From contig NC_089429.1 of the NCBI RefSeq assembly GCF_026210795.1, positions 2,666,001 through 2,730,000 of the forward strand: a DNA stretch of 64,000 nucleotides, given 5' to 3'. Numbering within the stretch: the first letter of the stretch is position 1; every line of letters begins with the position of its first letter. A model generated the notes under the pieces. The model had not been told where the DNA came from and did not search any database. It saw nothing but the letters and a program-made list of their open reading frames with translations. Made by a program: the position numbers and the translations under genes. This DNA comes from Rhizophagus irregularis (taxonomy: Eukaryota > Glomeromycota > Glomeromycetes > Glomerales > Glomeraceae). Positions 1 through 63,873 of this stretch are shown here, one piece after another.

Positions 1-2649
1 CACGATTAGAACGTGACATAAATAAAGAGAGTAAGAATTGAATAGCATTTTGAGGCAAACGTAAACGTTGAAAAGCAAAACGCAACATAGATAAATCAGG
101 ACCCCGGATATCTCCAAAACAGGTCATAAGTCACACTTTCGGCAGATTGGCCTATTTTTCAGGAGGCTCAAAAAATCGTTTTTTGTAAATATCTCGGCAT
201 CCAGTGGTCCAATTTTGATGAACTTTTTTATAAATTGTAGAGCTAAATGAGGGCTACAAAGTAAAAAAAAGTTCATTAAAATTGAATTACTGGATGCTGA
301 GATATTTACAAAAAACGATTTTTTGAGTTTCAGCAAAAAGGGGTGTTTTTGGCCAAAAGTCCATTATGACCTTTATATTAGATATCCGGGGTCCTGATAA
401 ATCCACAGAATCAAATGCTTTTGAAATGTCTTGAGAAAGAATCCATAAGGGTTGTTTAGTAACTACCGAATCATGGATGATGGATTCCAGAGTAATAATA
501 GGATCACGGCAGGACCCTCCAGGTAAACCTGCAAAATTACCGCCTTAGAGAACATGGTGAGAGGCAAGCAAAGGAGCGAGACGATTGTAAAAAAGTTTAA
601 CCAAAGCCTTACGAATCACCTCCAGTAAAGTGATAGGACGTGTATTTTTAAGTTGGCATTTCCATTCATGCGGTTTAGGAATAGGAAAAACAGTAGCTTG
701 TCTCCATAAATCAGGGATATTTGCTTCTGATAAACAAGCACAAATTAAGTTGAAAAGCAAGGTAGAAGCAGAAGGGCCTAGGTGTTTTAACATCTCGTAC
801 GAGATCATAGAAGGACCTGGGGTTTTATCGTTAGGCATGAATGAAATTGTTGAGTACCATTCATCAAGGGTAGGAGGATCCATTAGTGAATCAAAAATAG
901 CTGGAGAAACATCAGCAAGTGGTGTATAAGTTTTAGACCATCGATCAGGCAAATCCTGTATGGAAGAAGGAGGAGTAGAAGTAATTGGAACAAAATTTTG
1001 AAAATGATCAATAACTTCTTGATCAATAGCATCTGGAAAAGTTAATAAAGTAGGGTGTGTTGGATGATCAATAAAAACACGGTTAAGAACTATTCGTCGT
1101 CTGGTTCGTGACAAAGAAGACTCAATAAAAGTGGAAATATCATTGGTAAAGTTATCATTCCGAGCATCAATCTTTGCCTGAATAGAGGAAGCTTGGAATT
1201 CTTTTCTTTAAGCAAAAGTAGGCTTCGCAAAAGCAGAGTCATATTCTCTATTATTTGAAGTAAGTTAACAAAATCATCAATTCTTGCATCTCGAAGAAGG
1301 GGAGGAAGGATAATAGGTGTAACAAATGTTTGTTTATAAAGGGATAAAAGATTATTAAGACGTATATAATATGAGGACCATTTGGTTTCATGATGAATAG
1401 AATATGATGTAGGAGTCTTATGAAGGGAACGGATAGTCTTAGCCACGTTAGACAAAAATCTATAAGACTGGCATAAACTTTCCAAGTCTTTAGGCTTTTT
1501 TGGAACATAGGTGTTGTCCACAGTAACTGAGGGTAAGGCGGAATTAGCAGCCTTGATAATCCTAGAATAAAGATATTCACACTTCTGATTGAGAGGCCAA
1601 GCGTCAAAAATAAGTGGATCAATTGGACATAATTTATCCAAATCATCAGCAAAGACAGTCCACTGTTCAGTAGAAATAGAATCATATTTAAAAACACGTC
1701 GAGTATTGCGACCAAGTTGACGAGCTCGTGCAGATTTAATAGCATCTGATAATAATGAAACATCAAAATATGTAATAATAGGGTTATGGTCAGAAATGTG
1801 TAAATCATGAGCATCAAAAATAGAAGCTGTTAACATATATTGGCGAAGAAGTGGACAAGACCAAACAAAGTCAATACGGGTAATAGTATCCAAATGATGA
1901 TAAGTACCTAAGGTACCGGATAAATTAAGGGGGGTGCAATCCTCATAATTATGAGAAAGCAAATAGTGAAACAATTTGTGAATTCGTTTAGCAGCAACCT
2001 GAGGTTGATGCAAAAAAATAGGGTAATATTTCTCTAAATTCATATTAAAATCACCGCAAATAGCATGGTGAAAGTTTTGTGAAGAAGTTTGGAAAATAAG
2101 AGAAATTAATTGATCAATGACTTCGTAACGAAGAACAAGATCATTTGTAGAGGAGATATAGACAACAAATATACGCAATTTAACATTGCCTTTAAAAAAT
2201 AAGTCTACAGAAAGAATTCGAGAAAAATGGGATTGATAAAATTGAACATGCGTAGCTAAAGAGCTATGTATAAACAAAGAAACACCACCAGAGGAATGGC
2301 CGTGTTTGGTAGAATCCAAATCAGAATGAAAAGAAGTATAATCACAAACACGCTTAGATAAAAATTTCATTTGTTTAGGTGATAAATGAGTATCAACAAT
2401 GCCACCAAAGGAGATGTGATTACGAGAAAAAAAGGAAGAAATTTGGTCCATTTTAAAGGAACCTTGACCAGAAGTTTTAAGACCATTAACATTAAAGGAA
2501 GAAATGTTAAAAGAATTGGGGATGGGGGAAGTAGAAGAAGAGGGAGAAAATAATGTATCAGATATAGGATCATTAAAAATATCACTAAAATCAACGGGGT
2601 TGGGGGGATTTTGCACAAAGGTATCATGATCTATATTATTGTCCATCAT
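1..2649 (-). pseudogene. LINE copy 1 ORF2: EEP endonuclease + reverse transcriptase, broken and truncated by window edge
   Basis: It starts at 2649 with MMDNNIDHD. The N-terminal ~300 residues are an exonuclease/endonuclease/phosphatase (EEP) domain with FNVNGLK, DTHLS (Asp where APE-type nucleases usually have Glu), GDFNMN and ISDHNPI. A single-base deletion near 1200 (compare copy 2 at 9470) shifts the frame. The continuation reads at 1114-545 and shows the RT entry motif NDKTPGPS. A CAA codon is now TAA near 558, and the frame then continues (WILSQDISKAFDSVD) until a MITE at 98-395. The remaining RT lies beyond position 1. In LINEs this protein nicks the target and primes reverse transcription; this copy cannot make it. 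Confidence 0.85.
98..395. mobile_element. MITE family B (AGGACCCCGG…), 298 bp
   Basis: Its terminal inverted repeats start AGGACCCCGGATATCT and the interior is almost one long palindrome centred on a GATGAACTT…AAGTTCAT hairpin. It is flanked by an exact 8-bp duplication, GATAAATC (90-97 and 396-403). Copy 2 of the LINE (about 10270-10290) has the single uninterrupted site, so insertion and duplication are proved within the window. The 8-bp duplication points to a hAT- or P-type transposase. There is no coding capacity. Confidence 0.92.
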
Positions 2650-2697
2650 TATTACACTATGATAAGAATTACGGGGTGAAAGGGGAAGGATAACAAA

Positions 2698-4840
2698 TTA
2701 ATCAGACGAAGTCATATTGACTAAGTCCGAGGAAGAGCCACCAGAAATGGAGCTAATAAATCTTTCAATAGAACCGGATAAGTGATCGAATTTGTTATCT
2801 AAAGATCGTTGAAAGGAATAAATTTCAGCACGTTCTTTATTAATAGTAACTTCATCAGCAGTTTCGGGAATGGGGGAGGAGGAAATGGTGGAGAGGGAAA
2901 TAGGAACCATTGGGAGAGGGAGAATCGGGCCGGAAAGAGGCTTATTCGAGGCGGGCAGATTGGATTGTGTTAGATAAGGAGGGTGCGTTGGTGATTGTCA
3001 ACAAGCATATGTGAAAAATCATTGGGATCAGGTGGAAGAACATCGTCTTGCATATGTCCAAAAACACGAAGTTCCAGCCGAGACATTCTTTGATCAGCTA
3101 ATTCAAGAGCATGAATTCTAGCACGTACACTAGTCATATCTTCTTGAAGGCTTTTGAGCACCGAAAGGATCTCTTGAATTTGGGAACAACTAGGATCCAC
3201 CAAGGGAGGTTTATGGCCAGATGAGTTGGAAGTAGAGGTACTATTACGTTGAGAAGTGGAAAAGGAAACAGAACGGTCTTTGCCTTTACGCTCATTAGAT
3301 CGAGGTCGTTGTGCAGACTGGGTAGAATTATTGGAGTTAAGAGAATTGGGTGAAGAAGTATTATTGGTATTATTATTATTCCGACCAGTACTACTGGCAG
3401 AACGGTTACGTTGTCGAGAGTTAGAACGATCTTTAGATTGAGAACGAGAACGGTGTCTACTGCGATTAGCAGAAGAGTTATGGTTATTTGATTGTCCAAT
3501 ATTGAAACGTTTTTTTAAATGTGCAACAGGGTTACGGATGCATAAGCGACCTCGAGAATTGTTCAATGGGCATGCAGTAGGAGCGCAGCCCAGTTTGCCG
3601 CATCTATGGCAACAGCTTGTTTGTATTCTCTGGGAGTTCCCATTGGAGCCTATGACCTTGCAGGGCGATTGATTGTTCCATTGCAGTGTTCATCATTTGT
3701 TGTGATTTAAAATTGATGTAAGCCCATCGTTTAGGTTTGTAGGAATTAAGAGATAAGGGGATATTAACAGCCATAGCACCAACTGCTTATACCAAGGGCG
3801 CTAAATGCACATTTTTTGTGTTAGGAGGAAGCTGAGATAAAACAGCAACGAATTCACGTCGCGATTTCTTTTGATCAAGAGTAAGGGAGCACGGTGTAAT
3901 ACGTAAACAAGTAGAATAACAATAGATCGCCCACTGTTTATCCATAAAATGTTGGATGGAGGAGACATCATCATAAACGATACGAGCTTGTTGGACTTTA
4001 GCATTAGCACGTGTATGAAGGCGACAGGATTGTATGTTACCATACTTTTTGAAAAGAGCAGTAATATCATCTTTCTTGATGAAGAACGGGATGTCGGTAA
4101 CTTGGATAGCTCGAAGATCTTCATCGGTTCGGAGTTGCTGTGGGTCATGTAGGAAAAATCTGAGATCGGCAAAATCATCATGTCGGAGAGAAAGGCAGGC
4201 GTCACGTTCGGTGGTCGAGTTAAAATGAATAACCAATCTTTTGAAGTCGAGAGCCAGGGACATGCGGGCGCGGCCGATGTAGGAGTGATAAGTTTCCAAA
4301 GGAGATTATTGACGGCGTCAATCGCTAGCCGATTGGTAGGATATTTTTACAAATTCAGGGGAAATATTAGGCGCCGCAGCAGCTGATAATCACGCCTAAG
4401 AATGGAAATAGTGGGCGTGTCGGGGAGGAGAAGTATCATTGGTATCCATAATATCCTTGATTAGACGCATCTAAGGGGGAAGTTTCTTTGTCTTTTGGAG
4501 CATGCATGGACGCGTCAGTACCAGATGCGACAGAACCAGACGCAGAAGGCGCAGTAGTATCTATGGGAGGAGGAGACGTAAAATTGTCAGCATTATTTTG
4601 TTGAGGAGGAGTAGTATTGCTACTTAGCGTCGCTCTGAAGTCGGCGACGTAATCTTCTTCTATGGGATTTTCTGGGAGCGTACGGGTACGTTTGAAAGGG
4701 TTGTTTTTATTGTTTGTTTGTTCATTATCAGAGTTCGAAATGTCAGAGCTAGAGTCTTTATTTTTGTTTCGTTTGTCTTATCGCTTGGCAGGTCCCCCGT
4801 TAGGGTTATTGCCAGCTTTTTTATTACCTTTGGGAGGCAT
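2698..4840 (-). pseudogene. LINE copy 1 ORF1: RRM / zinc-knuckle RNA-binding protein, broken
   Basis: The start codon is at 4840-4838 (MPPKGNKK…), and the same start is present in copy 2. The visible order is: an acidic/Ser-Asn-rich N-terminus; an RRM-like fold at about 4110-3900 (RNP2-like IQVTDIP, RNP1-like QQARIVY); a zinc knuckle at about 3600-3620; an Arg/Ser-rich stretch at 3480-3400 (SRHRSRSQSKDRSNSR); Asn/Ser-rich linkers; and a short C-terminal helix ending at 2698. The reading frame is broken several times, so only segments (3787-4299, 2970-3566, 2698-2910) stay open. In LINEs, ORF1 binds the element RNA to form the transposition particle; that role is inferred here from domains only. 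Confidence 0.75.
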
Positions 4841-4941: not shown

Positions 4942-5193
4942 AAGTAACACTTTTGGTAAATTGGCCCATTTTTCAGGGGTTCAAAAAATTATTTTTTATA
5001 AATATCTCGGCATCCAGTAGGCCAATTTTGATGAACTTTTTTTTAAATTGTAAAGCTAAATGAAGGCTACAAAATAAAAAAAGTTCATTAAAATTGAATC
5101 ACTGGATGCTGAGATATTCACAAAAAACGATTTTTTGAGTTTTAGCAAAAAGGGGTGTTTTGGCCAAAAGTCCATTAGGATCCCGATCTGCCA
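4942..5193. mobile_element. MITE family B remnant between the two LINE copies
   Basis: The palindromic core of family B is clear (ATCTCGGCATCCAGT… and its mirror), but the AGGACCCC termini are missing. On both sides lies the LINE 5' sequence in mirror image (…AGAGTTGGCAGAT / ATCTGCCAACTCT…). The MITE therefore sits exactly at the centre of the LINE inverted repeat. Confidence 0.75.
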
Positions 5194-5280
5194 ACTCTTT
5201 CTTGTAGATCCTTGGTCAAAAAATTTCGCGGAAGAAATTTTTACTCTTCGTATCAATACATCTCTTATTTTACTATTAAA

Positions 5281-7436
5281 ATGCCTCTCAAAAGTAACAA
5301 AAAAGCTAGCAATAACCTTAACGGGGGACCTGCCAAGCGACAAGATAAATGAAACAAAAATAAAGACTCTGGTTCTGACGTTTCAAACTCTGATAATGAA
5401 CAAACAAACAATAAAAATAACCCTTCCAAACGTACTCGTACGCTCCCAGAAAATCCTATGGAAGATGACTACGTCGCCGACTCAGCAGTTGATGCTGGAG
5501 GCAGCAATACTACTCCTTCTCAACAAAATAATACTGACAATTTTTCGTCTCCTCCTCCCAAAGATACTACTGCGCCTTCTGCGCCTGATTCTATCGCATC
5601 TGGTACCGACGCGTCCATGCATGCTCCAAATGACAAAGAATCTTCCCTCTTAAACGCGTCTTCTAATAAGGATATTATGGATACCAATGATACTTCTCCT
5701 CTTCCCCTTGATACGCCCACTATTTCCATTCTTAGGCGTGATTATCAGGCTGCTGCAGCGCCTAATACTTCCCCTGAATTTGTCAAAAAATATCCTACCA
5801 ATCGGGCTATGATTGACGCTGTCAATAATCTCCTTTTGGAAACTTATCACTCTTACACTGGCTGTGCTCGCATGTTTGGTTCTGGTGACTTCAAAAGATT
5901 AGTCATTCATTTTAATTCAATCACTAAACGTGATGCTTGCCTTTCTCTCTGACATAATGATCTTGCCGATCTCCAATTTTTCCTACATGACCTACAGCAA
6001 CTCCGAACTGATGAAGATCTCCGGGCTATCCAAGTTACTGATATCCCGTTTTTCATCAAAAAAGATGATATTATTGCTCTTTTCAAAAAGTATGGTAACA
6101 TACAATCCTATCGTTTTCATACGCGTGCAAATGCTAAAGTCCAACAAGCTCATATCGTTTATGATGATGTTTCTTCCATCTGGCATTTTGTTGATAAGCA
6201 GTGGGCGATTTATTGCTACTCCACTTGTTTACGCATTACGCCATATTCCCTCACCCTTGATAAAAAGAAATCATGACGTGAATTCGTTGCTGTTTTATCT
6301 CAACTCCCTCCTAACACAAAAGATGTGCATTTAGCGCCCTTGGTACGAGCAATTGGCGCTATGGCCGTTAATATCCCCCTGTCTCTTAATTCCTACAAAC
6401 CTAAACGATGAGCTTACATCACTTTTAAATCACAACAAATGATGGACACCGCAATGGAACAATCAATCACCCTGCAAGGTCATAGATTCCAATGGGAACT
6501 CCCAGAGAATACAAACAAGCTTTGCCATAGATGCGGCAAACTGGGCTGTGCTCCTGCTGCATGCCCATTGAACAACTCTCGAGGTCGCTTACGCACCCGT
6601 AATCCCATTACACACTTAAAAGAACGCTTCAATATTGGACAATCGAATAACTATAACTCTTCTGCTAATCGCAGTAGACATCGTTCCCGCTCTCAATCCA
6701 AGGATCGTTCTAATTCTCGATAACATAATCATTCAGCCAGTAATACTGGACGGAACAATAATAATACCAATAATACTTTTTCGCACAATCCCTCTAATTC
6801 TAATAATTCTACTCAAACTGCTCAACGATTTTGATCTAATGAGTGTAAAGGCAAAGACCGTTCAGTTTCCTTTTCCACTTCCCAACATAATAGTACCTCT
6901 GCTCACAATTCATCTGGCCACAAACCTCCCTTGGTGGATCTTAATTGTTCCCGAATTCAAGAGATCCTTTGGTGCTTAAAAGCCTTCAAGAAGATATGGC
7001 TAGTGTACGTGCTAGAATTCATGCTCTTGAATTAGCTGATCAGAAGATGTCTCGGCTGGAACTTCCTGTTTTTGGACATATGCAAGACGATGTTCTCCCA
7101 CCTGACCCTAATGATTCTTCACATATGCTTGTTGATAACCACCAAAGCACCCCTCCTTATATAACACAATCTAACCCGTCCACCTCGAACAGGTCCTTTT
7201 CTGGCCTGATTTTCCCTTCCCCAATGGTTCCTGTTCCCCGTTCCACTATTTCCTTCTCCTCCATTCCCGAAACTGCCGATGAAGCTACTATTAATAAAGA
7301 ACATGCTGAAATTTATTCCTTTCAACGATCTTTAGATAACAAATTCGATCACTTATCCGGCTCTATTGAAAGATTTATTAGCTTCATTTCTGGTAGCTCT
7401 CCCTCGGACTTAGTCAATAAGACTTCGTTTGATTAA
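5281..7436 (+). pseudogene. LINE copy 2 ORF1: RRM / CX2CX4CX4C knuckle / SR-rich protein, broken
   Basis: The start codon at 5281 matches copy 1. The order is: acidic N-terminus; conserved block LLLETYHSYTGCARM (about 5830-5880); RRM-like domain (IQVTDIP near 6030, QQAHIVY near 6145); zinc knuckle CHRCGKLGCAPAAC (about 6524-6570); SR-rich stretch (6660-6720); Asn-rich linker; and a C-terminal segment with SLDNKFDHLSGSIERF (about 7330-7376). At least five in-frame stops occur (for example near 5360, 5951, 6274, 6721, 6832), mostly explained by transitions from Arg, Gln or Trp codons still present in copy 1. An additional frameshift lies near 6970. It is not functional. Confidence 0.8.
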
Positions 7437-7484
7437 TTTGTTATCCTCCCCCTTTCACCCCATAGTTTTTATCATAGTGTAATA

Positions 7485-10400
7485 ATGATGAACGATAATA
7501 TAGATTATGATACCTTTATGCGAAATCCCCCCAACCCCGTTGATTTTAGTGATATTTTTAATGATCCTTTATCTGATACATTATTTTCTTCTTCTTCTTC
7601 TACCTCCCCCATCCCCAATTCTTTTAACATTTCTTCTTTTAATGTTAATGGTCTTAAGACTTCTGGTCAAGGTTCGTTTAAAATGGACCAACTTTCTTCC
7701 TTCTTTTTACAAAATCATATCTCCTTTGGCGATATTGTTGATACTCATCTATCGCCTAAACAAATGAAATTTTTGTCTAAACGAGTTTGTGATTATACTT
7801 CTTTTCATTCTAATTTAGATTCTACTAAATATAGCCGTTCTTCTGGTAGTGTTTCTTTATTTATACACAACTCTTTAGCTACCCATGTTCAATTTTATCA
7901 ATCTCATTCTTCACGAATTCTTTCTGTAGACTTATTTTTTAAAGGCAATGTTAAATTGCGTATATTTGTAGTCTATATTCCCCTACAAATGACTTTGTTC
8001 TTCGTTATAAAGTCATTGATCAATTAATTTCTCTTATTTCTCAAACTTCTTCACAAAATTTTCACCATGCTATTTGCAGTGATTTTAATATGAATTTGGA
8101 GAAGTTTTACCCCATATTTTTACATCAACCTCAGGTTGCTGTTAAAAGAATCCATAAACTATTTCATTATTTGCTTTCTCATAATTATGAGGATTGTACC
8201 CCTCTTAATTTATCCAGTACCTTAGGTATTTATCACCACTTGAACACTATTACCCGCATTGACTTTGTTTGGTCTTGCCCGCTTCTTCATCATTATATGT
8301 TAACATTAACCATTTTTGATGCCTATGATATACACATTTCTGACCACAATCCTATTATCACCTATTTTGATGCCTCTTTACTGTCAGATGCTATTAAATC
8401 TGCTCGTGCTCGTCAACTTGGCCGTAATACTCAACGCGTCTTTAAATATGATTCTATTTCTACTGAACAGTGGACTGCTTTTGCTAATGATTTGGATGCG
8501 TTATGTCCAATTGATCCACTTGTCTTTGATGCTTGGCCTCTTAACCAGAAGTGTGAATATCTCCATTCTAGGATTATTAAAGTCGCAAAATCCAATTTAC
8601 CCTCAGTTACTGTGAGCAATACTTATACTCCGAAGAAGCCTATCACAGGTCAAAAAGTGAAAAATCAGGCACCAATCGGTTACCAATCAGGTAGCTGATT
8701 GGTAACTAATTGGTAACCGATTGGTGACTGATTGGCATTTTTGCCAAATACCGTCACCAATCAGACAGTTTACTAACTTTTGATCTAGTGATCAGAAAAA
8801 GATGAAATATAGCTCATTGGAATCGTCTTAACATGACGAATCTAATGGTAGTAAAATCGAATTTCTAGGATTAATACTTGATGAGAAATTAAGTAAAATA
8901 TAAAAATAAAAATGTATCATTTATATTTTATTTAATTTTTTATTAACTATTAATCCTAGAGATGTGATTTTACTACCATTAGATTCGTCTTATTGAGACG
9001 ATTCCAATGAGCTATATTTCATTCTTTTCTGATCACTGGATCAAAAGTTAGCAAACTGCCTGATTGGTGACGGTATTTGGCAAAAATGCCAATCAGTCAC
9101 CAATCGGTTACCAATCAGGTACCTGATTGGTGACCGATTGGCGACTGATTGATGCCTGATTTTTCACTTTTCAACCTGTACTAAGGATCTGGAAAGTTTA
9201 TGCCAGTCTTACCGATTTTTGTCTAAAGTGGCTAAGACTATCTGTTCCCTTCATAAAAATCCTATTTTATATTCTGTTAGTTTTGAAACCAAATGGTCTT
9301 TTTTTTATATACGTCTTAATAATCTCCTTTTTGTTTATAAACAAATTTTTGTTATCTTTATTGTTCTTCTTTCTTCTCTTCATGATGAACGAATTGATGA
9401 TTTTGCTAATTTACTTCAAACGTTAGAGAACATGACTTTGCTTTTGCGGAGCCTACTTTTGCTTAAAGAAAAGGAATTCCAAGCTTCCTCTATTCAGGCA
9501 AAAATTGATGCTCGGAATGATAACTTCACCAATGATATCTCCACTTTTATTGAATCTGCCTTGTCACAAGCCAGACAACGAATCGTTCTTGATCGTGTCT
9601 TTATTGATCATCTAACACACCTTACTTTATTAACCTCTCCAGATGCCATTGATCAAGAAGTTATTGAACATTTTCAAAACTTTGTTCCAATTACCTCTAC
9701 TCCTCTTTCTTCCATACAGGATTTGCCTGAACGATGGTATAATGCATATGCGCCACTTGCTGATGTCTCTCCAGCTATTTTTGATTCGACATGGATCATC
9801 CCTCCCTACGCTTGATAGAATAGGTCATGACAATTTCCTCCATGCACAATGATAAAGTGCAGACCCTCTATGATCTCGTATGAGATGTTAAAACACCTAG
9901 GTCCTTCTGCTTCTGCTCTGCTTTTCAACTTAATTTGCGCCTGTTTATCAGACGCAAATATCCCCTGATTTATGGAGACAAGCTACTGTCTTTCCTATTC
10001 CCAAACCGCATGAATGGAAATGCCAACTTAAAAATACACGTCCTATTACTTTATTAGAGGTAATTCGTAAGGCCTTGGTTAAGCTCTTTTACAATCGTCT
10101 CGCTCCTTTACTTGCCTCCCACCATGTTCTCCAAGGAGGTAATTTCGCAAGTTTACCAAGAGGTTCCTGCCGTGATCTTATAATTACTCTGGAATCTATT
10201 ATCCATGACTCAGTAGTCACCAAACAACCCTTATGGATCCTCTCTCAAGACATTTCAAAAGCGTTTGATTCTGTTGATTTATCCATGTTGAGTCTTGCTC
10301 TCCAACATTTACATCTGCCACAAAATGCTATTCAATTCTTACTTTCTTTGTTTATGTTCCGTTCTAACCGTGTCATTACTGCACATGGCCCTACTCCACC

Positions 10401-13400
10401 ATATAGAGTTAGAATTGGGATTGACCAAGGTGAAGTTATCTCTCCGCTCTTATGGGTTATTTATTTAGACCTTCTGCTCACAGCTCTCAAAAATGAGAAG
10501 AAAGACTCTTATCGTTTGGTTTCTCCAATGGCTTCTGATACTGTTTCATCAAACTCTTGTTCTCTGGATGTTTTGGAAATTAATAATTTGGTGTTTATGG
10601 ATGATTCTACTTTGATTTCTTCTTTTAAAGAGGGAATGGAACATATGTTGTCTATCACTGAAGAATTTTATCGTTTGAACAATACTTCAGCCAACCATAA
10701 TAAATATGTTTTAGCCACCAATGCAGTTGCTGCTTCTCGAGATTTATCTCCTATTGCCTTTAATTTGAGGACTTCATCACTCAACATTATGTCCAATATT
10801 ACTGTTACTCCTATCCCTATGTCCTCATCTTTCCGTTTTTTGGGCGTTTGGTTTAATATTAACGGCTCTAGGAATTTTATCTGACAGCAACTCAAACGAG
10901 AATGTAATTCTTTCTCTGCAATTCTCCGCCCTGCGAAATTGACTGTTCAACAAGTGGTATATCTTTATAATACTGTTTTAATCCCGAAATTGGATTATTG
11001 AATGCAAGTCACGCATTTATCTGAGATTAAATGTTCTACTATTACTTCTTCAGTTCGTGCCTTAGTTAAACACAAGGCCAAATTATCACGTTCTATTCCT
11101 AATGTGGTGTCATATTTAACACAAGCCTTGGGTTTGATCAATTTATTTTCGTTTCAACAACAAAGTCATTTTACTAATTTATTTTTGTTAGCAAATTCTT
11201 CTTCTGTTTTTATGAAATCACTTTTTAATTATAGGTTGCGATTTATTCAATTTTATTGTTTAATTCCTATTTCTCCTTTGATGGTTTTGGATTGGACTTG
11301 TTGGTCTTCTCTTATAATTTTTAAACAAGATTATATCGCTAATACTTTAGCTTCATTGCTCTCAACTCCCTTCCGTCTGTCACGCGCTAATTTATCACTT
11401 GTGCCTGATTTAACTTATCCTAATGGCCATACTCCCATTTATCAATGTCTTTCTTTGGATGTATTCAAGGCCAATTTAACAAGACTTCGAAAACATGGCC
11501 TTTTTTACCTTTCGCAACTTTTGACACCTCAGGGAACACATTTACTCTCTTGGTCTGTCATATATGCTAACTCTATTCAAAAGCGTGGTAATGCCCGTCT
11601 TCCCAATTGGTATAAAAATCTTTCTGCCAACGTCACGATTCCAGATAAACCTGGTTTATTGAAAGATCGATTTATGACTGAACAACGACCTGTGAGCCAG
11701 ATTGCAAAAGAACTTGCTCTTTGTATTCCTCCTTCTGGTTATAAGAAGAATTGGATTGTCACGATGAATGATGATGGCTTCCCTATATTCGGTAAACAGA
11801 TTCAAATCCAACCTAAGTATTTTACTTGTACTATTGTACATTGGATTTCAGACTGCTTATCTCGTCCGAGCGACTTTATTACTTTACAACCCTGTCCTGG
11901 CTGCATCTTGAATATAAACAAATCCTCTTATATAAAAAAATCGGTTGCTACCAGTTCTGTGTCTTGCTCCTATTCGGTCTCTCTTCGTCGGTCATGGATT
12001 TTGCCTATGAAGAAATCATCTATTATGAATCACACATTCAGCTTGATTGCTACGGTGTCATGGACAGAAATCATGGATTTTGTTACTTCAATTTGCAATC
12101 CTTCAGTTCGCTTAGCGTTTGTTGCTGATATTCCCAATATTTTCCTTGATACTGTTGACATGGCTTTGCCTACTCCACATTTACTTATGGCTGGCGATGT
12201 TGCTGCATTATCATTGGTCGTGTTTTCTCCAGACTCACATTATACCTTTTACACTGATGGTTCTCTTATTAATTTAGGAACTAGTGATGCCTCTATGGGA
12301 TGGGATTGGGTTCAAATTGTTAAAGATTCTGGCTTTCATAATTCCATTGCCACTTATAAGCGGGGTATTATTCATGATTGGCCTTTCTCTTCTCAAGCCG
12401 AAGCTGCTGCTATTTATGCTGCCTTATCAGCTTCTCCTGCCAACTCAGTTGTTCATATTTATACAGATTCACAGTCTTCCATCGAGGGTTTGAAACATTG
12501 TTTTTTATCTGATTATTCAGTTTCTCGTCTTTATTATAAGACTACCAATTTTGAACTTTGGGCCATCATTCAACAACTGATTGTGGATAAACAACTTTCG
12601 GTTTTGCCTTTCAAAGTTAAAGCTCACTTTAATTTTTATTGGATTGACTTCACTGATTCTCTTGCCAATACTGCCCATACATCTGACGACACTGTTCTCA
12701 TCTTCCATCTCGATCTCGCCACGGTTCATGATTATATTATGCTTTATGATGACGTGGTCTGTGAATCCAACCCAAGACATCTGTTTAAACAATATCACCA
12801 GATGTTGTATATGAAAGACCTCTTAGCTCTTTCTCGCTTCCATTTTATTTCTCTCTTAACGGATCCATCTCGATACATGATTGATTGGGCTCTTACCTAG
12901 CATACATTAATGTTCCAACCTAAATTTGATAATTCTTTCACCAAGGAGAATGTCTCTAGACATCACACGTTAAAATTTCAACTTTTTCTGGAAGACCTAC
13001 CCACTTTGGAATCACTGAAAAGGACACGACCTGATTTATATGTGGAGATTTTAACCTGTCGCTCTTGTGAAGATCATTTTGAAGATTTTATGCATTTATT
13101 TTTATGCAAAAAGTGTCGTGTTAAATTACACCAAATTTTAACATCCTACCTCCACCACCTTATTCAAAAACTTAAAGAAGCGGGTGATAATGCCAATTGT
13201 GATTATTCTTCTCTAGTTGATAGAATTACTTCCCTCCCTTGTTGGACTTTCTCATCTAGTAATTGGTCCTCCTATAGTCTGGTTCGTGGCTGTTTGCCTA
13301 CCGCCTTTCTAGAAGTTTTTGAAAACTTAGGTATTCCTCGCCTTGCTGCTATGAATGTGGTTGCTGCCATACATAACAATTTTGTCAACAAATTCCGTAA

Positions 13401-13689
13401 ACGAATTTGGAATCCGCATTCGTATGATAAAGGATTATGGGAATATGCAATAAACATCACTTCAACACTTAAACAATTTTCAAGGCCTAAAGGTTTGTCC
13501 AAATCTTCTTATTTACCTTACTCATCTTTACCACTTCTGACCTATGCTGATTCACGTGACTCCAGAACCGATTGGTTAAAAAACTCGATGCAATATGGAT
13601 TATCTTGGTTTAATCACATTTCGGTTTTTATGGGTCGTCTAACGGTGCTACTTAAAAACTGCTTTTGCAGGATGGAGTATCGATTTTAA
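7485..13689 (+). pseudogene. LINE copy 2 ORF2: EEP endonuclease, reverse transcriptase, RNase H, Cys-rich tail; broken
   Basis: Domains run in order. The EEP nuclease covers 7485-8450 (FNVNGLK, DTHLS, SDFNMN where copy 1 has GDFNMN, ISDHNPI), with a one-base frameshift near 7980. A linker is split by the MITE at 8643-9180. Decayed sequence lies at 9815-10070. The RT palm is at 10075-10884 (SQDISKAFDSVD; GIDQGEVISPLL; catalytic box FMDDSTL). There are stops at 10881 and 11000. The RT thumb and RNase H are at 11002-12900 (YTDGS, SQAEAAAIYAAL, YTDSQSS, FTDSLANTA carrying the expected acidic residues). After a further stop comes a C-terminal CRSC…H…C zinc-binding region (about 13060-13105), typical of LINE ORF2 tails. 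The protein is dead through several independent lesions. Confidence 0.87.
8643..9180. mobile_element. MITE family A (TCACAGGTC…), 538 bp, inserted in LINE copy 2
   Basis: It is a long imperfect palindrome. The ends read TCACAGGTCAAAAAGTG and CACTTTTCAACCTGTA, followed inward by many copies of ACCAATCGGTTACCAATCAG-like words. A central pair of arms carries GAATCGTCT…GACGAATCTAATGG. It sits between CTA (8640-8642) and CTA (9181-9183). LINE copy 1 (near 1495) has one CTA at this point, so a 3-bp target duplication is supported. Three-base duplications fit CACTA or Harbinger-type transposases. No ORF is carried. Confidence 0.9.
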
Positions 13690-13985: not shown

Positions 13986-14238
13986 TTCAGAGATCAAAGA
14001 AAAAGAATTCCAACTATTTTTTGCAGACAAAGCAAATGTAAACATGAGTTCTTACAAAATAGACGCAAAAACACAATTACCAATACTTTATTTGAAAGAT
14101 CAAAAAAGTGCTTTTTGGGAAAAATTTTCTGCTACTTATCCTGATGGGATGAAACGTACTTCTTTTATGTTCTGCTTACAAAATAGTTACTTCAAATCAC
14201 TAGTCGGAATATTCCATTTCGTCCAAATTTCAAATTGA
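13986..14238 (+). pseudogene. Fragment of an unrecognised protein-coding sequence
   Basis: An open frame from the MITE junction to 14238 reads EIKEKEFQLFFADKANVN, then LPILYLKDQKSAFWEKFSAT and PDGMKRTSFMF. Composition and phrasing are protein-like (mixed aromatic and charged residues, no low complexity), unlike random AT-rich frames nearby. There is no upstream start of its own, and it ends in a degenerate tail, so it is a truncated piece. I do not recognise the family, and no function is assigned. Confidence 0.4.
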
Positions 14239-14576
14239 TGAATGTTGAGCGAAAGTTGGTCTAAATTCAGCTGATCATTGCCAAAAAAATCATCAAAATT
14301 ATTATGGACGATTTGCACAGTTCACCTGCCACTTGTCAACAAATCGATCAGTAGAAATTGACAACAAATCAGTAAAATCAAATTGACGATTGTTAATAAA
14401 CCTAATAATTTATTACTGATTTTTGTACATTTAACTAATTACTGATTTTAATTTTATAATAATTTATTAATTAAATTTTATTAATTCGTTTATTAAAAAT
14501 TACATAAATTAATATCTATCTATCATCTATATACACCATCCACTGCCCACCATCCATCATCCATCATCCACCTAAC
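14239..14576. other. AT-rich noncoding spacer with CCATC/ATCC microsatellite
   Basis: No coding frame or terminal repeat is seen. The stretch ends in a short simple repeat (CATCCATCATCCATCATCC, about 14537-14572) directly before the tandem array. Confidence 0.5.
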
Positions 14577-15664
14577 CTGATAAAAGTCTGTAGAAAACCT
14601 ACAAAAAAAAGAGGAAACGGGTAGTAACCTATTTTTTAAATAAAAAAATTGAAGTTTCAAAAGAAACTTACCTGATCTAATAAAATCTGAAGAGAAACCT
14701 ACAAAAAAAAAGTAAAGAAACGGTTAGTTCGTTTCTTTAATAAAAAAAAATAAAGTTTCAAAAGATTTGAAACTTACCTGCCCATCCAATAAAGTCCGAA
14801 GGAGAAAATCTACAAAAAAAAGAAGAAACAATTAGTTTAATGTTTCTTTAATAAAAAAATTAAAGTTTCGAAAATTCGAAACTTACCCACAAATTCGATA
14901 ATAGAAACTAACAAATAAAAAAAAGAAACGGTTAGTTCGTTTCTTTAATAAAAAAAATAAAGTTTTGAAAAATTCAAAACTTACCCGCCCATCTAATACT
15001 CGCCCATCCAATAAAGTCCAAAGGGAAAATTTACAAAAAAAAAGAAGAAACAATTAGTTTAATATTTTTTCAATAAAAAAATTAAAGTTTCAAAAATTCG
15101 AAACTTATCTGCCCATCCAATAAAGTCCCAAGGGGAGAACCTACAAAAAAAGAAGAAACAATTAGTTTAACGTTTCTTCAATAAAAAAATTAAAGTTTTG
15201 AAAATTTGAAACTTACCCGCCCATCCAATAAAGTTCCAAGAAGGGGAAACCTACAAAAAAAAGAAGAAACAATCAGTTTAACATTTCTTAAATAAAAAAA
15301 ATTAAAGTTTTGATACTTCAAAACTTACCCGCCAATTTGATAATGGAAACCTACAAATAAAAAAAATAAAAAAATGGTTAGTCCATTTCTTTAATAATAA
15401 TAAAAAATAAAGTTTCAAAATACACTTCAAAACTTACCCGTCTATTCAATATTAGTCCGAAGAAGAACCTACAAAAAAAAATTAAGAAACGGTTAGCAAA
15501 CCGATTCTGTTATAAAAAAAATTTCAAAGTTTCAAAATCGAAACTTATCCGATCCATCAGCCTGAAATGGAAGCCTACAAAAGTAAAAAGAAATGATTAT
15601 TAGTAAATCATTTCTTTTAAAGTTTCGAAATTAACCCAACTTCAAAACTTACCATCGACCAACT
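14577..15664 (-). repeat. Tandem array A1: ~105-bp units with intron/mini-exon architecture
   Basis: About ten degenerate units occur. Read on the minus strand, each has a T-run plus GTAG (acceptor-like), then 22-46 nt (often …GGACTTTATTGGATGGGC), then GTAAGTTT (donor-like), then 70-85 nt with two small hairpins (AGTTTCGAA/TTCGAAACT type and GAAAC…GTTTC type). Donor-like GT dinucleotides lie at 14670, 14776, 14885, 14983, 15215, 15327, 15436 and 15651. Two units carry GATAAG instead (near 15115 and 15545). These signals match the introns of the real genes in this window (GTAAG…TTTTTTAG). The exon-like pieces are not multiples of three and carry no clear protein. Confidence 0.8.
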
Positions 15665-15769
15665 CATGCCCTAAACTCTAATATCTATTATACTTCGAGA
15701 GCGAATAGAGGTGGACCAAAATGAAAAGGTGATAACAGGAATAATGCACCAAAAGCGGGTGGTGATGCA

Positions 15770-16190
15770 CCAAAAAGAGGAGGTGATCTTGAACCTACAA
15801 AAAAAATGTTAGTAAACGTTTTGTTAAATAAAATTTTTTAAAAACATTTAACTCTCCTACTAAAGTTCCCACGTGTCTAAAAGAGGTGATCTTGAACCTA
15901 CAAAAAAAAAGAATAAAACGTTAGCAAACATTTTGTTAAATAAAATTTTTAAAAAACATCTAACTCTCCTACTAAAGTTTCTATGCGTTTAAAAGAGGTG
16001 ATCTTAAATCTACAAAAAAAAGAATGAAAACGTTAGCAAACATTTCGTTAAATAAAATTTTTTTAAAAAATCTAACTCTCCTACCGAAGTTTCCACACAT
16101 CTAAAAGCTGAATAACTAAAAAAAAAAATTTGAAATTAGTTTATTAAGGCAAAAACAAAAGAAATAAAAAAAATTAAAAACTTACCAAAA
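15770..16190 (-). repeat. Tandem array A2: ~120-bp units continuing the intron-like array
   Basis: Three units share AGAGGTGATCTT and CTAACTCTCCTAC blocks on the plus strand. On the minus strand each begins after TTTTTTTGTAG (acceptor-like ends near 15795, 15898, 16012) and contains GTTAGCAAACGTT-type hairpins similar to array A1. The upstream-most module (minus strand, about 16230-16187) has acceptor TTCTTTTAG, a 33-nt piece and donor GTAAGTTTTT. The block between A1 and A2 (15664-15770) is unique sequence with possible coding character. Confidence 0.65.
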
Positions 16191-16194
16191 TACT

Positions 16195-16400
16195 GTATCC
16201 AAAGAGTCGAGGCATCACCTAAAAGAAGAAAGAGGGAATGGACGAAAGAAAGGGAAAAGGGAAAGACAAAAAAGTGAGAGGAAAGGGAGATGAAAAAGTG
16301 AATAGAAAGGGGGGAAGACAAAAAAGTGACGAATAGGGTGAGTGGAAAAGTAAAATGAAAAAGTGGAAGTGTGAGAAAAAAAAAAGTTAATTTAAGTTAA
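16195..16400. other. Polypurine tract
   Basis: The plus strand is almost purely A/G over about 180 bases (GAAAGGGAAAAGGGAAAG and similar), with interspersed AAAAAGTGA words. No protein-like frame is present. It sits immediately upstream (minus-strand sense) of the splice-like array. Confidence 0.6.
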
Positions 16401-16664
16401 ATATAGTATCACCTATTGTGTAATGCACGTGATACATAATTTTATAAAATATCGACTAAAAAGTTATTGGTCAATTTTTTTTCAATTTTTAAGTTTAGCC
16501 AAAATCTAGTCGAATCATGTGACACTTCAGACGAAATTTTGCTGAAAGGTCTTGGTGACGAAAGAAATGATTTTGACCAGTAGCGAAAACAACAGTTGAT
16601 TCGCATCACGCAACGGTAAATAATTATTTTGATGTAATTTTAATTTTTTTTCTCATTTTATGTT

Positions 16665-49559: not shown

Positions 49560-50480
49560 TAATATTATAAAGTAACTAGAAATGAAATGTTAGAAATGTT
49601 TCTTTAAACTCAAACAAATAAGAAAAGTCCTTCTTCCTTATTTACCTTTAAAAGTATGGTATGTACAAAAATCCAAGCATCCCTAAAAAAAAAAATAAAA
49701 ATGAAACATTAGAAATGTTTCTTTAAAGTCAAACAAATAAAAAAACCCCCTTCTCTTTCCAATTTACCTTTAAAGTCCATATATACAAAAAATCCAAACA
49801 TTTCTAAAAAAAAAAAAATAAAAATAAAACGTTAGAAATATTTCTTTAAAGTTAAACAAATAAAAAAATCCCTTCTCTTTTTGATTTACCTTTAAAGTTC
49901 GTATATATAAAAAATCCAAGCATCTCTAAAAAAAAAAATAAAAATAAAATATTAGAAACATTTCTTTAAAGTCAAACAAATAAAAAAACCCTTTCTTTTC
50001 CCAATTTATCTTTAAAGTCCATATATACAAAAAATCTGGAAACCTTAGAAAAGAAATAGAAAATGAAACGTTAGAAATATTTTTTTAAAGTTAAACAAAA
50101 CTTTCTTCTTTTTCCAATTTACTTTTAAAATCTGGTATATTCAAGAAATCCGAAAACTCTAAAAAAAAATGAGAAATAAAATGTTAAAAATATTTCTTTA
50201 AAGTCAAACAAATAAAAAAAGTTCTTTTTTCTAAAGTTTGACATATACAAAAAACTTAGCATTCTTAAAAAAAATAAAAAATAAAATATTAAAAATGTTT
50301 TTTTAAAGTCAAACAAAAAAACTCACTTCTTTCTAATTTATCTTTAAAGTTTAGTATATATAAGAAATCCAGAAACCTTAGAAAAAAAAGATAAGAAATA
50401 AACTGTCAAAAATATTTCTTTAAAACCAAATAAGAAAAAAAATATACTTATTATTCCAGTCTGCCGAAACCTAAAAAAAA
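49560..50480 (-). repeat. Tandem array B: ~118-bp units with intron/mini-exon architecture
   Basis: About eight units are seen. On the minus strand each reads TTTTTTTTTTAG, then 35-37 nt of type ATGCTTGGATTTTTTGTATA…GACTTTAAAG, then GTAAAT (or a decayed ATAAAT), then about 80 nt with a GAAAC…GTTTC hairpin and TTTGTTTGACTTTAAAG. Donor-like sites recur near 49640, 49762, 49882 and 50117; decayed ones near 50004 and 50338. The AAAG|GTAAAT junction is a good donor consensus. The architecture parallels array A (14577-16190), although the sequences differ. Confidence 0.8.
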
Positions 50481-54600: not shown

Positions 54601-55856
54601 CAGTCAACTCTCTTTATAGTCACATATTTGGGACAGTCCATATTTGGTGATTATGAGCAAACAGTCTTACGACTTTATCTTTTATTATTAAATTTAAACG
54701 AAAAGTACAATAAACAGATCGAACAATATTACAAATATCAAATATAGAAAATAAACATAAAAAATAAAAAGAACTAGCTTCACAATTCATACAAGTAAAG
54801 AAATCTAAACAAAATAAAATTAAGTAAAGAAAAACTAAACTATTACAGAAACGCATACCCCATCTTTACCCGAAGGCCAGTGTGAGTCAACTATCCAGCA
54901 TGTCCTAAGATCCAATCCGTTACCAAAAATAAATCCTAAGTAGAGGCTGAACTGTTAAGCGGCGCCAAAAATCCAAATGCGAAATCCAAGATCCTCCACG
55001 GATTATAGAAGAGGAAACCCAAGAAACTCAGGAATCCAAGGAAGCTGTCGCCAAGGAAGGTGTCGAAGAGTCAAGAGGAATGTTAGAGGAAGGTCAAAGA
55101 ATAGAAGAAGGCCCAATATTTGGTGATTATAAAGAGATGTGACTATATAAAAAATTTCTTATATTTGTATATCATAATTCCGGCCAAAAATTAACATAAT
55201 TTTAGTCAGAATTATACTTAAAACTTTATTGTATCGTAACTTCGCCAATATTAATCGTAGAGAGATGATCTTACCGCCATTCGATTCGTCTTGATGAGAC
55301 GGTTCTAATGGTATAAAATACGTCGAAATCCAATCACTAGATTAATTTCCGAAATTAAAAAAATATTAATGGTTTTTGTGTAATAATACTGCCAATATTG
55401 ATCCTAGAAAGACGATTTTACTACCATTCGATTCGTCTTGATGAGATGAATCTAATGGTATATACATCGATATCCAATCACTAGATCAATTTCCAAAATT
55501 AAAAAATATTAAATGGTTTTTAAGTAATAACTCCGTCAATATTGATCACAGAGAAATGAGCTTACTGCTATTCGATTCGTCTCGATGAGACGATTCTAAC
55601 AAGCTATGATACATCTTTGTACGATTATTAGATGGCAAGTTATTTAATATATTCTTTATATAACTGTGATTATAAACGGTTCTTTTTAATATAAGATTTT
55701 TGAAGATAGGTGTGATAGACTGATAGTGACTATAGATAGATTGTGACTATATAGGATAGATTTTAATAATAAAGTGTTTTGTTTTGAACATTCAACTGGT
55801 ATGACTATATAGTAGAATGTGACTATAACGGGAGTGAATATAGAGGGAGTTGACTG
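54601..55856. mobile_element. pogo-type element (CAGTCAACTCTCTTTATAGT), 1256 bp
   Basis: The ends CAGTCAACTCTCTTTATAGT and TATAGAGGGAGTTGACTG are inverted repeats with TA on both sides. Internally, three ~130-bp units with GATTCGTCT…GACGA and CCATTCGATTCGTC words alternate with ATTGATC blocks. The element at 62913-63873 is its inverse-oriented sister, without the extra segment 54654-55110. Confidence 0.88.
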
Positions 55857-62912: not shown

Positions 62913-63873
62913 CAGTCAACTCCCTCTATAGTCACTTCCGTTATAGTCACATTCTACTATATAGTCACACCAGTTGAATGTTCAAAACACTTTATTATTA
63001 AAATCTATCCTATATAGTCACAATCTATCTATAGTCACTAACACACCTATCCTCAAAAATCTTATATTAAAAAGAACCGTTTATAATCACAGTTATATAA
63101 AGAATATATTAAATAACTTGGCATCTAATAATCGTACAAAGATGTACCATAGCTTGTTAGAATCGTCTCACTGAGACGAATCGAATGGTGGTAGTTTTAT
63201 CCTTTTACGATCACTGGCTGATGAGTTATTCAACAAAATGTTAAGCATCGGCATTATTATATTCCTTGATTTACGTTTACTGCGCCATTTAACATTTTGC
63301 TAAATATCTCGGTACCTAGTGATTGTAAAAAGACGATTAATAGCTCGTTGGAATCGCCTCATCAAGACGAATCTAATGGTGGTAAGCTCATCTCTCTATG
63401 ATCAATATTGACGGAGTTACTACTTAAAAACTATTTAATATTTTTTAATTTCGGAAATTGATCTAGTGATTGGATTTCGATGTATTTTATACCATTAGAT
63501 TCGTCGCATCAAGACGAATCGAATGGTAGTAAGATCGTCTCTCTAGGATCAATGTTGGCAGAGTTATTACACAAAAACCATTAATATTTTTTTAATTTCG
63601 GAAATTAATCTAGTGATTGGATTTCGATGTATTTTATACCATTAGAACCGTCTCATCAAGACGAATCGAATGGCGGTAAGATCATCTCTCTACGATTAAT
63701 ATTGGAGGAGTTACGATACAATAAAGTTTTAAGTATAATTTTGGCCAAAATTATGTTAATTTTTGGCCGGAATTATGATATACTAATATAAGAAATTTTT
63801 TATATAGTCACATCTCTTTATAATCACCAAATATGGACTGTTCCAAATGTGTGACTATAAAGAGAGTTGACTG
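62913..63873. mobile_element. pogo-type element (CAGTCAACTCCCTCTATAGT), 961 bp
   Basis: The ends CAGTCAACTCCCTCTATAGT and ACTATAAAGAGAGTTGACTG, with TA on both sides, match the element at 54601-55856 in reverse. Between 63130 and 63720 it carries repeated units with GAATCGTCTC…GACGAATC and ATCAATATTG words. Confidence 0.9.

What the first reader, a model, noticed from the sequence alone, without database searches (positions are those of the whole stretch)
14577..16190. Tandem array built from intron/mini-exon modules (array A)
On the minus strand about ten units repeat the order T-run plus GTAG, 22-46 nt, GTAAGTTT, 70-85 nt. These are the same donor and acceptor words used by the real introns in this window. 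The core exon-like text (GGACTTTATTGGATGGGC) is conserved better than chance, yet lengths are not multiples of three. It may be a multi-micro-exon noncoding RNA, a gene made by exon-intron unit amplification, or an element that spreads as intron plus exon.
Basis: partly seen in the sequence, partly recalled or inferred. Interest (0 to 1): 0.85.

Follow-up and report, generated by a model that had tools for sequence, protein, structure and literature searches.

The report
Transposons packed with tiny hairpin introns
The repeat is the inside of a small DNA transposon of what is very probably a root-symbiotic fungus, built largely from tiny intron-like pieces with miniature non-coding exons between them, and the same build recurs over a thousand times in the genome in many unrelated sequences, which suggests (without RNA proof) that these transposons use the host's splicing machinery.

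Summary
The minus strand of 14577-16190 holds 11 intron-like stretches (70-87 nt); ten alternate with nine mini-exons of 21-46 nt. Eight strict donor-acceptor pairs stand against 0.03 in shuffles. The array is the interior of a 2.4-kb dispersed element (14198-16582) with CACTG/CACTA-type ends. Equal 3-bp flanks are present at 14 of 19 related loci, though not here, and longer copies with these ends hold tnp2: a non-autonomous CACTA transposon. The build is genome-wide: acceptor / 15-45 nt / GTAAGT / 55-85 nt / acceptor occurs 1,039 times, against 6 for the reversed pattern. A sample of 179 modules forms 21 exon families at my cut. A branch-point word precedes the 3' end in 145 of 179 (shuffled 10), and all 21 family representatives fold more stably, by z-score, than all 15 ordinary introns compared. 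Exons show no shared frame. Best reading: a transposon-borne, cis-spliced, non-coding multi-mini-exon gene. Splicing is inferred only: no RNA was available, no spliced copy was found, and recent pairing changes show no RNA-strand preference. Evading silencing through intron-rich transcripts is my bolder guess.

The parts
14198..16582 (-). whole non-autonomous CACTA-type element carrying the array (array sense is minus)
   Evidence: shared ends of dispersed copies; related loci with the same ends, 14 of 19 with equal 3-bp flanks; this copy has unequal flanks (AAT/GCG)
14198..14220 (.). left terminal inverted repeat, CACTAGTCGGAAT... (inner border approximate)
16560..16582 (.). right terminal inverted repeat, ...TTTTGACCAGTA (last base differs from CAGTG; inner border approximate)
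16233..16382 (-). pyrimidine-rich leader (88% C+T over 150 nt) upstream of the array, promoter-like position
   Evidence: function inferred
16116..16185 (-). first intron-like stretch, 70 nt; close copies in L002, L004-L007, L020, L021
15795..16115 (-). three units of 106, 112 and 103 nt with T-run+TAG acceptors but no GTAAGT donor
15653..15794 (-). 142-nt exon-like stretch between the two sub-arrays
15575..15652 (-). intron-like stretch, 78 nt
15549..15574 (-). mini-exon, 26 nt
15469..15548 (-). intron-like stretch, 80 nt; donor reads ATAAG
15438..15468 (-). mini-exon, 31 nt
15351..15437 (-). intron-like stretch, 87 nt
15329..15350 (-). mini-exon, 22 nt
15251..15328 (-). intron-like stretch, 78 nt
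15217..15250 (-). mini-exon, 34 nt
15141..15216 (-). intron-like stretch, 76 nt
15109..15140 (-). mini-exon, 32 nt
15031..15108 (-). intron-like stretch, 78 nt; donor ATAAG and acceptor GTAA
14985..15030 (-). mini-exon, 46 nt
14908..14984 (-). intron-like stretch, 77 nt
14887..14907 (-). mini-exon, 21 nt
14810..14886 (-). intron-like stretch, 77 nt
14778..14809 (-). mini-exon, 32 nt
14699..14777 (-). intron-like stretch, 79 nt
14672..14698 (-). mini-exon, 27 nt
14599..14671 (-). last intron-like stretch, 73 nt
14500..14598 (-). last exon-like stretch (GGATGAT repeats) before the A+T-rich left part; its end is not determined
   Evidence: inferred

Best explanation
The array is the body of a non-coding, multi-mini-exon gene carried by a non-autonomous CACTA (EnSpm/CMC) transposon. 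Shown by sequence: CACTG/CACTA-type ends with 3-bp target duplications in most related loci; one array sense per element in the window's family; in many copies a C+T-rich leader; then repeated modules of [T-run + AG] - mini-exon of 20-50 nt - GTAAGT - often a hairpin overlapping the donor - often a hairpin holding CTAAC - T-run + AG; no shared reading frame; same build in many exon families across the genome. Inferred: host RNA polymerase II starts near the C+T-rich leader inside the right end, the host spliceosome removes each 70-100-nt intron, and a short joined RNA of mini-exons results. Inferred: arrays grow and shrink by slippage or unequal exchange of whole modules, while selection in mobile lineages keeps splice signals and hairpins. 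Most speculative: the benefit to the transposon is that its transcript is intron-rich and is handled as ordinary host mRNA (less silencing, less damage when it sits in a transcribed region).
For: Order and spacing far beyond shuffles in the window. Genome-wide module pattern 521+518 against 3+3 for the pattern read backwards; exon 65-95 nt 118+102 against 3+3, many listed rows being one near-identical family; intron 125-155 nt 38+27 against 4+1: counts peak at mini-exon and short-intron size. Branch-point hairpin plus acceptor 333+336 against 0+0. Over 42 loci, 38 hold 183 strict modules; 179 with introns up to 100 nt form 21 exon families at my cut. CTAAY, not part of the pattern, in 145 of 179 (shuffled mean 10.2, maximum 14) and 15 of 21 family representatives (1.0, maximum 4), branch A a median 24 nt from the 3' end, quartiles 24-26. 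Array introns fold at mean z -3.3 (21 representatives) against +0.4 for 15 chaperonin introns, no overlap, p = 2e-7. Donor-hairpin inner pair 3 is Watson-Crick in 93 of 95 with three pair types, permuted mean 64.7, maximum 73; one representative per family 12 of 12. GTAAGT in sense and antisense 127 and 6 over 15 elements oriented by their ends (rows, summed). Exon lengths modulo 3: 50/62/67. CMC-EnSpm elements are reported as expressed in R. irregularis (PMC8647823, PMC11075540; passages).
Against: No RNA data were available. No exon-exon junction of a joined 9-exon chain was found in the genome. At the two CpG-bearing stem positions non-Watson-Crick pairs are G-U 65 and A-C 55, and Watson-Crick 203 against 188 permuted (P 0.03): no RNA-strand preference, recent variation looks like CpG decay. 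RNAalifold on a MAFFT alignment of 15 introns predicted no pair; I think the arms slip out of register. Hairpins cover part of donor and branch point, which could hinder splicing. 2 of 11 window donors are broken. Longest perfect stems exceed the shuffled 95% level in only 7 of 21 (donor) and 11 of 21 (branch point) representatives. 8 of 39 frames of joined chains, in 5 of 13 copies, have no stop, though pieces over 60 nt were dropped from these chains. L033 and L040 hold strict modules on both strands.
Confidence: 0.62

Rival explanations
1. A DNA-level array: the palindromes are binding sites or structural units needed for transposition (like the subterminal repeats of CACTA elements), and the splice-like words are by-products of an A+T-rich repeat.
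For: Many modules hold one or two palindromes; donor-stem changes are G-U 65 and A-C 55, no RNA-strand preference; the arrays are tandem repeats in transposons.
Against: Three tnp2 loci that share an end lack GAAACG..CGTTTC and AACGTT..AACGTT palindromes (0 in each; but GTTTCG..CGAAAC occurs 3 times in L030, and one array copy, L013, also has 0 of the first two) and hold no strict module; donor palindromes differ in sequence between families while GTAAGT, CTAAY and TAG stay in order and distance; strand bias.
Confidence: 0.14
2. Introner-type proliferation: the hairpin introns are mobile introns that multiplied, and the array is one place where they piled up.
For: Across 15 families introns share a consensus while exons differ; fungal introner-like and symmetrical introns with inverted repeats are in print (PMC8469720, abstract).
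Against: Units repeat exon and intron together, so tandem duplication is simpler; none of the 15 chaperonin introns folds like these; mobility is accounted for by the CACTA-type ends.
Confidence: 0.09
3. Decayed remains of a protein-coding gene whose repeated exons once encoded a repeat protein.
For: Modular exon-intron amplification is known for repeat-protein genes (recalled); 8 of 39 joined frames are open.
Against: Mini-exon lengths differ between copies and are spread evenly modulo 3; 31 of 39 joined frames have stops; 21 exon families at my cut.
Confidence: 0.05
4. Mini-exon donors for trans-splicing, like spliced-leader RNA arrays.
For: Tandem units, mini-exon of leader size, donor inside a hairpin.
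Against: Units also have a branch point and a 3' splice site directly before the next mini-exon, which leader genes do not need (recalled); leader trans-splicing is not known to me in fungi.
Confidence: 0.03

Closest known systems
CACTA (EnSpm/CMC) DNA transposons, non-autonomous members
   Same: CACTG/CACTA-type ends, equal 3-bp flanks at 14 of 19 loci, tnp2 in longer copies with the same ends
   Different: interior made largely of intron/mini-exon modules, no sign of a deleted transposase gene in the window copy; the tnp2 loci checked hold no such module
Introners and introner-like elements; symmetrical (stw)introns of Hypoxylaceae (PMC9860276, listing and word search; PMC8469720, abstract)
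   Same: families of similar spliceosomal introns that proliferate; inverted repeats in the Hypoxylaceae case
   Different: here they sit in tandem, with their mini-exons, inside a non-coding transposon; not seen in the 15 host introns compared
Micro-exon genes (for example of schistosomes; recalled)
   Same: many very small exons in a row
   Different: those exons keep the frame (recalled); here lengths modulo 3 are even
Tandem non-coding exon-intron units such as the SNORD116 host gene (recalled)
   Same: repeated non-coding exon plus intron
   Different: no Rfam match at gathering score in the window; introns only 70-100 nt

Membership tests
CACTA superfamily | ends CACTA/CACTG in inverted orientation | tested here: met
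   the window copy reads CACTAG...CCAGTA, one base off at the right end
CACTA superfamily | 3-bp target site duplication | tested here: met
   equal flanks at 14 of 19 loci; unequal in the window's own copy and in L004, L009, L019, L020
CACTA superfamily | tnp2-type transposase in autonomous relatives | tested here: met
   PF02992 in L011, E 1e-6, 28.5 bits, just under the 28.6 cut-off; relatives of that protein about 1.3 kb from the same right end at five loci, one of them, L031, with both ends by exact word
U2-type spliceosomal introns | donor, branch point, T-run and AG in order and at working distance | tested here: met
   donors, acceptors and length limits are part of the search patterns, the branch point is not
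U2-type spliceosomal introns | actual removal from RNA | not testable with these tools
   no RNA held; no spliced copy found in the genome
Introner elements | same intron inserted in many host genes | tested here: inconclusive
Micro-exon genes | exon lengths that keep the reading frame | tested here: not met
CACTA subterminal binding repeats | same motif present in the autonomous partner | tested here: inconclusive
   branch-point-type palindromes 0 in three tnp2 loci; donor-type palindrome 3 times in L030, 0 in L029 and L031; exact end words complete only in L031

The most novel reading that the evidence does not exclude
A whole class of transposons in this fungus has armed itself with hundreds of arrays (extrapolated: 61 clusters among the first 100 listed places of 1,039) of host-type introns, so that its non-coding transcripts pass as ordinary intron-rich host RNA and escape silencing: an intron-based disguise, the mirror image of host systems that recognise mobile DNA by its lack of introns (HUSH in humans, PMC8770142, seen as title and abstract start).
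Probability: 0.15. Interest if true: 0.92.

Novelty: categorically new. Interest (0 to 1): 0.76.

Why it matters
If spliced, this is a kind of gene that I did not find in the papers I could search: non-coding, mobile, and composed largely of tiny structured introns. It would give a natural library of over a thousand mini-exons for asking how the spliceosome handles exons of 20-50 nt and donors inside hairpins, a possible source of new introns, and a direct test of whether introns protect transposons from silencing. About two thirds of the transposable elements of R. irregularis were called unclassified (PMC11075540, passages); these arrays may explain a part of them. The carrier transposon is of a known kind; only the cargo is new.

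Tried and rejected
Rfam on the window: no match at gathering score. Joined mini-exon chain against the genome: most of the 39 matches stop within 2 nt of an exon border; four run further across one (query 1-49, 156-190, 184-220, 184-217), and at all four the genome has the intron's own splice words there, so none is a junction. G-U against A-C as an RNA test: no preference. RNAalifold on 15 introns: no pairs, and the model built from that alignment was sequence-only. Single-linkage clustering joined nearly all modules through T-runs (172 of 183) and was replaced by clustering on exons. Ends of other arrays: CACT[AG]-type ends with equal 3-bp flanks for L032 and L038 and CACAGG-type for L056, the longer piece around L034, that is 3 of 13 regions; not for the other ten, four of which I extended to 10 kb (L052-L055). 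Those may lie in other element types or reach beyond the piece fetched, so 'all arrays are in CACTA elements' is not claimed. Coding frames after the array, in its sense, in five 10-kb loci: none of 110 aa or more except one of 183 aa about 1 kb beyond it in L053. Paper searches for such arrays: none seen in the listings, which show at most 15 papers each; one search returned none; most subscription papers are not held.

Full report
1. Observation. On the minus strand of 16220-14577 the words alternate as described: 10 introns of 73-87 nt (15652-14599) with 9 mini-exons of 21-46 nt between them, plus one 70-nt intron upstream (16185-16116). GTAAGT 9, acceptors 12, pairs at intron distance 8 and CTAAY 13, against shuffled means of 0.38, 2.3, 0.03 and 2.7 (1000 shuffles); the plus strand has 0, 0, 0 and 6. 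Three units of 106, 112 and 103 nt (15795-16115) have acceptors without GTAAGT donors. Two donors (15548, 15108) and one acceptor are broken.

2. The carrier. A search of the window's own genome with the array gave 69 matches, 40 of 331 candidates being scored. Alignment of the first eight loci put common ends at 14198 and 16582. Ends read CACTGGTC... in most relatives, CACTAGTC...GACCAGTA here. The two end regions match 41 and 49 places, with 40 of 135 and 40 of 89 candidates scored. The 3 bases outside the ends are equal at 14 of 19 loci; not in the window copy, L004, L009, L019 and L020. A 9.7-kb copy with the same ends (L011) holds a tnp2 match (PF02992, 28.5 bits, cut-off 28.6), and relatives of that protein lie about 1.3 kb from the same right end at C10, C25, C18, C14 and C11; the C11 element (L031) has both CACTGGTC ends by exact word, 7.8 kb apart. 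L009 and L010 hold an RNase H gene (LINE-like) and MULE-transposase frames instead, which I take as nested insertions. The window's element is therefore a non-autonomous CACTA transposon. The genome has 146,748,485 bases in 32 contigs; the published R. irregularis DAOM197198 assembly has 32 scaffolds and 146,773,001 bp (PMC10234402, passages), so the host is very likely this fungus; no call names it.

3. Other arrays in related elements. Elements with the same ends carry other arrays with different exons and introns but the same order and sense. GTAAGT in sense and antisense (rows, summed): 154 and 8 over 18 end-bounded elements; 127 and 6 over the 15 of these oriented by their ends, the other three (L032, L038, L056) being oriented by their array. 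L019 has 0 and 0; the four 10-kb loci without found ends (L052-L055) have 34 and 9. A C+T-rich stretch (83-96% over 150 nt) precedes the array in L001-L004, L007, L013, L020, L021, L023, L052, L053 and L056; it is weaker, absent or elsewhere in L012, L014-L019, L032, L038, L054 and L055. The tnp2 loci L029-L031 yielded no strict module and no GAAACG..CGTTTC or AACGTT..AACGTT palindrome; GTTTCG..CGAAAC occurs 3 times in L030. Array copies vary too: the same three words give 2/0/1 in L001, 2/1/6 in L007, 0/0/2 in L013, 1/0/1 in L032, 4/3/7 in L033, 5/2/8 in L035.

4. Genome-wide. TTTTTTNTAG N15-45 GTAAGT N55-85 TTTTNTAG: 521 forward and 518 reverse; control (pattern read backwards) 3 and 3. Exon 65-95: 118 and 102, control 3 and 3; many of the listed rows are one near-identical family. 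Intron 125-155: 38 and 27, control 4 and 1. Branch-point hairpin plus acceptor: 333 and 336, control 0 and 0. Of the 100 places that I entered, 70 have a same-strand neighbour within 600 bases and none an opposite-strand one; joined at 1,500 bases they form 46 clusters, four with both strands. The 100 places form 61 clusters, two with both strands. Thirteen regions were chosen from the list, all on C1 and C2. A looser count there gives 4-13 modules on the richer strand and 0-2 on the other, except L033 (10 and 4); some modules are counted twice through alternative donors.

5. Introns. A strict pattern over 42 of the 44 loci then held (L008 and L022 left out as duplicates) gave 183 modules in 38 loci; L019 and L029-L031 gave none. 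The 179 with introns up to 100 nt form 21 exon families at my cut (the number depends on the cut, and several families share one element). Exons: median 33 nt; introns: median 82 nt, both bounded by the pattern; exon length modulo 3: 50, 62, 67. CTAAY lies 10-45 nt before the 3' end in 145 of 179 (shuffled 10.2) and in 15 of 21 representatives (1.0); branch A median 24 nt from the end, quartiles 24-26. This word was not part of the pattern, so it is an independent sign of introns. An alignment of 15 representatives keeps GTAAGT and TAG and most of AAGAAACG..CTAACGTTTCTT.

6. Structure. Folding z-scores: 21 representatives mean -3.3, 15 chaperonin-gene introns mean +0.4, complete separation (control borders were set by eye from gaps). 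Frequent fold: one hairpin from donor position +3 (AAGTTTCG...CGAAACTT), one around CTAAC. 114 of 131 GTAAGTTT introns have the two donor-hairpin arms, in 14 families. Inner pair 3 is Watson-Crick in 93 of 95 with A-T, C-G and T-A, permuted mean 64.7, maximum 73; pair 4, 71 of 80 (65.7, 70); pair 5, 24 of 46 (19.4, 24); pair 6, 23 of 28 (13.8, 21); pairs 1 and 2, the CpG positions, 75 of 111 and 59 of 98, do not exceed permutation (73.1, 58.1). With one representative per family pairs 3 and 6 are Watson-Crick in 12 of 12 and 8 of 9. The rows are related, so the permutation overstates the case. Against: longest perfect stems exceed the shuffled 95% level in 7 of 21 (donor) and 11 of 21 (branch point); G-U 65 and A-C 55 at the CpG positions, Watson-Crick 203 against 188 permuted, P 0.03; RNAalifold found nothing on the MAFFT alignment. 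My reading: pairing was kept while families diverged; changes within copies are decay after insertion, mostly at CpG.

7. Coding. Joined mini-exons of 13 copies, pieces over 60 nt dropped, have a stop in 31 of 39 frames; the 8 open frames lie in 5 copies (L013, L020, L024, L027, L028). I see no frame shared by the copies, and lengths at comparable places differ (for example 28, 29 and 30 nt). No joined copy was found in the genome at the sensitivity (for the four border-crossing rows).

8. Interpretation. Shown: a repeated intron/mini-exon build, one strand, in a CACTA transposon; the same build genome-wide in many sequences, with branch point and structure. Inferred: transcription from the right end, splicing, module amplification, selection in mobile lineages. 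Guessed: that an intron-rich transcript helps the element evade silencing. In human cells HUSH silences intronless mobile DNA (PMC8770142, title and abstract start), and a review on Cryptococcus introns exists (PMC5851062, listing only; the link of its introns to RNAi is recalled); neither is evidence for this fungus.

9. In print. The listings show no description of such arrays. Two R. irregularis transposon papers searched by word have no word beginning with 'intron' in their main text (PMC11075540, PMC8647823) but report CMC-EnSpm expression. The introner survey PMC9860276 has no 'Glomero', 'tandem' or 'CACTA' in its main text.

Noticed in passing
window 49580-50442, minus strand: Array B has the same build with other words: T-run+AG, about 36-nt exon ending TTTAAAG, donor GTAAAT, CTAAC/CTAAT, about 85-nt intron; related stretches lie elsewhere in the genome. 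Its ends were not determined.
   Followed up: partly
L040 (C2:998000-1002600), L033 and clusters: Two arrays lie back to back on opposite strands within a short distance, as if served by one central bidirectional promoter or made of two elements.
   Followed up: no
genome-wide, rows: A near-identical dispersed family (ATCAGTTTGGGAGTCCTTTCC...) with several T-run+TAG words in a row supplies many of the rows of the 65-95-nt exon search.
   Followed up: no
L031 (C11:864230-873500): A 7.8-kb tnp2 element with both CACTGGTC ends and tandem arrays of its own (among them 57-bp and 114-bp units); it holds no strict module.
   Followed up: partly
window 545-4299 (minus) and 5135-13689 (plus): Two LINE-like elements in opposite orientation, one ending just before the CACTA element (ORFs; identity recalled, not searched).
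   Followed up: no
window 55243-55599 and 63360-63721: Two arrays of a 144-147-bp unit whose consensus units look like reverse complements of each other.
   Followed up: no
L042 360-1060 (C1:6968200-6971700): An 80-bp tandem repeat of GCCGAAACGTTTTTT...AAAAAACGTTTCGGC palindromes beside an intron-type array.
   Followed up: no
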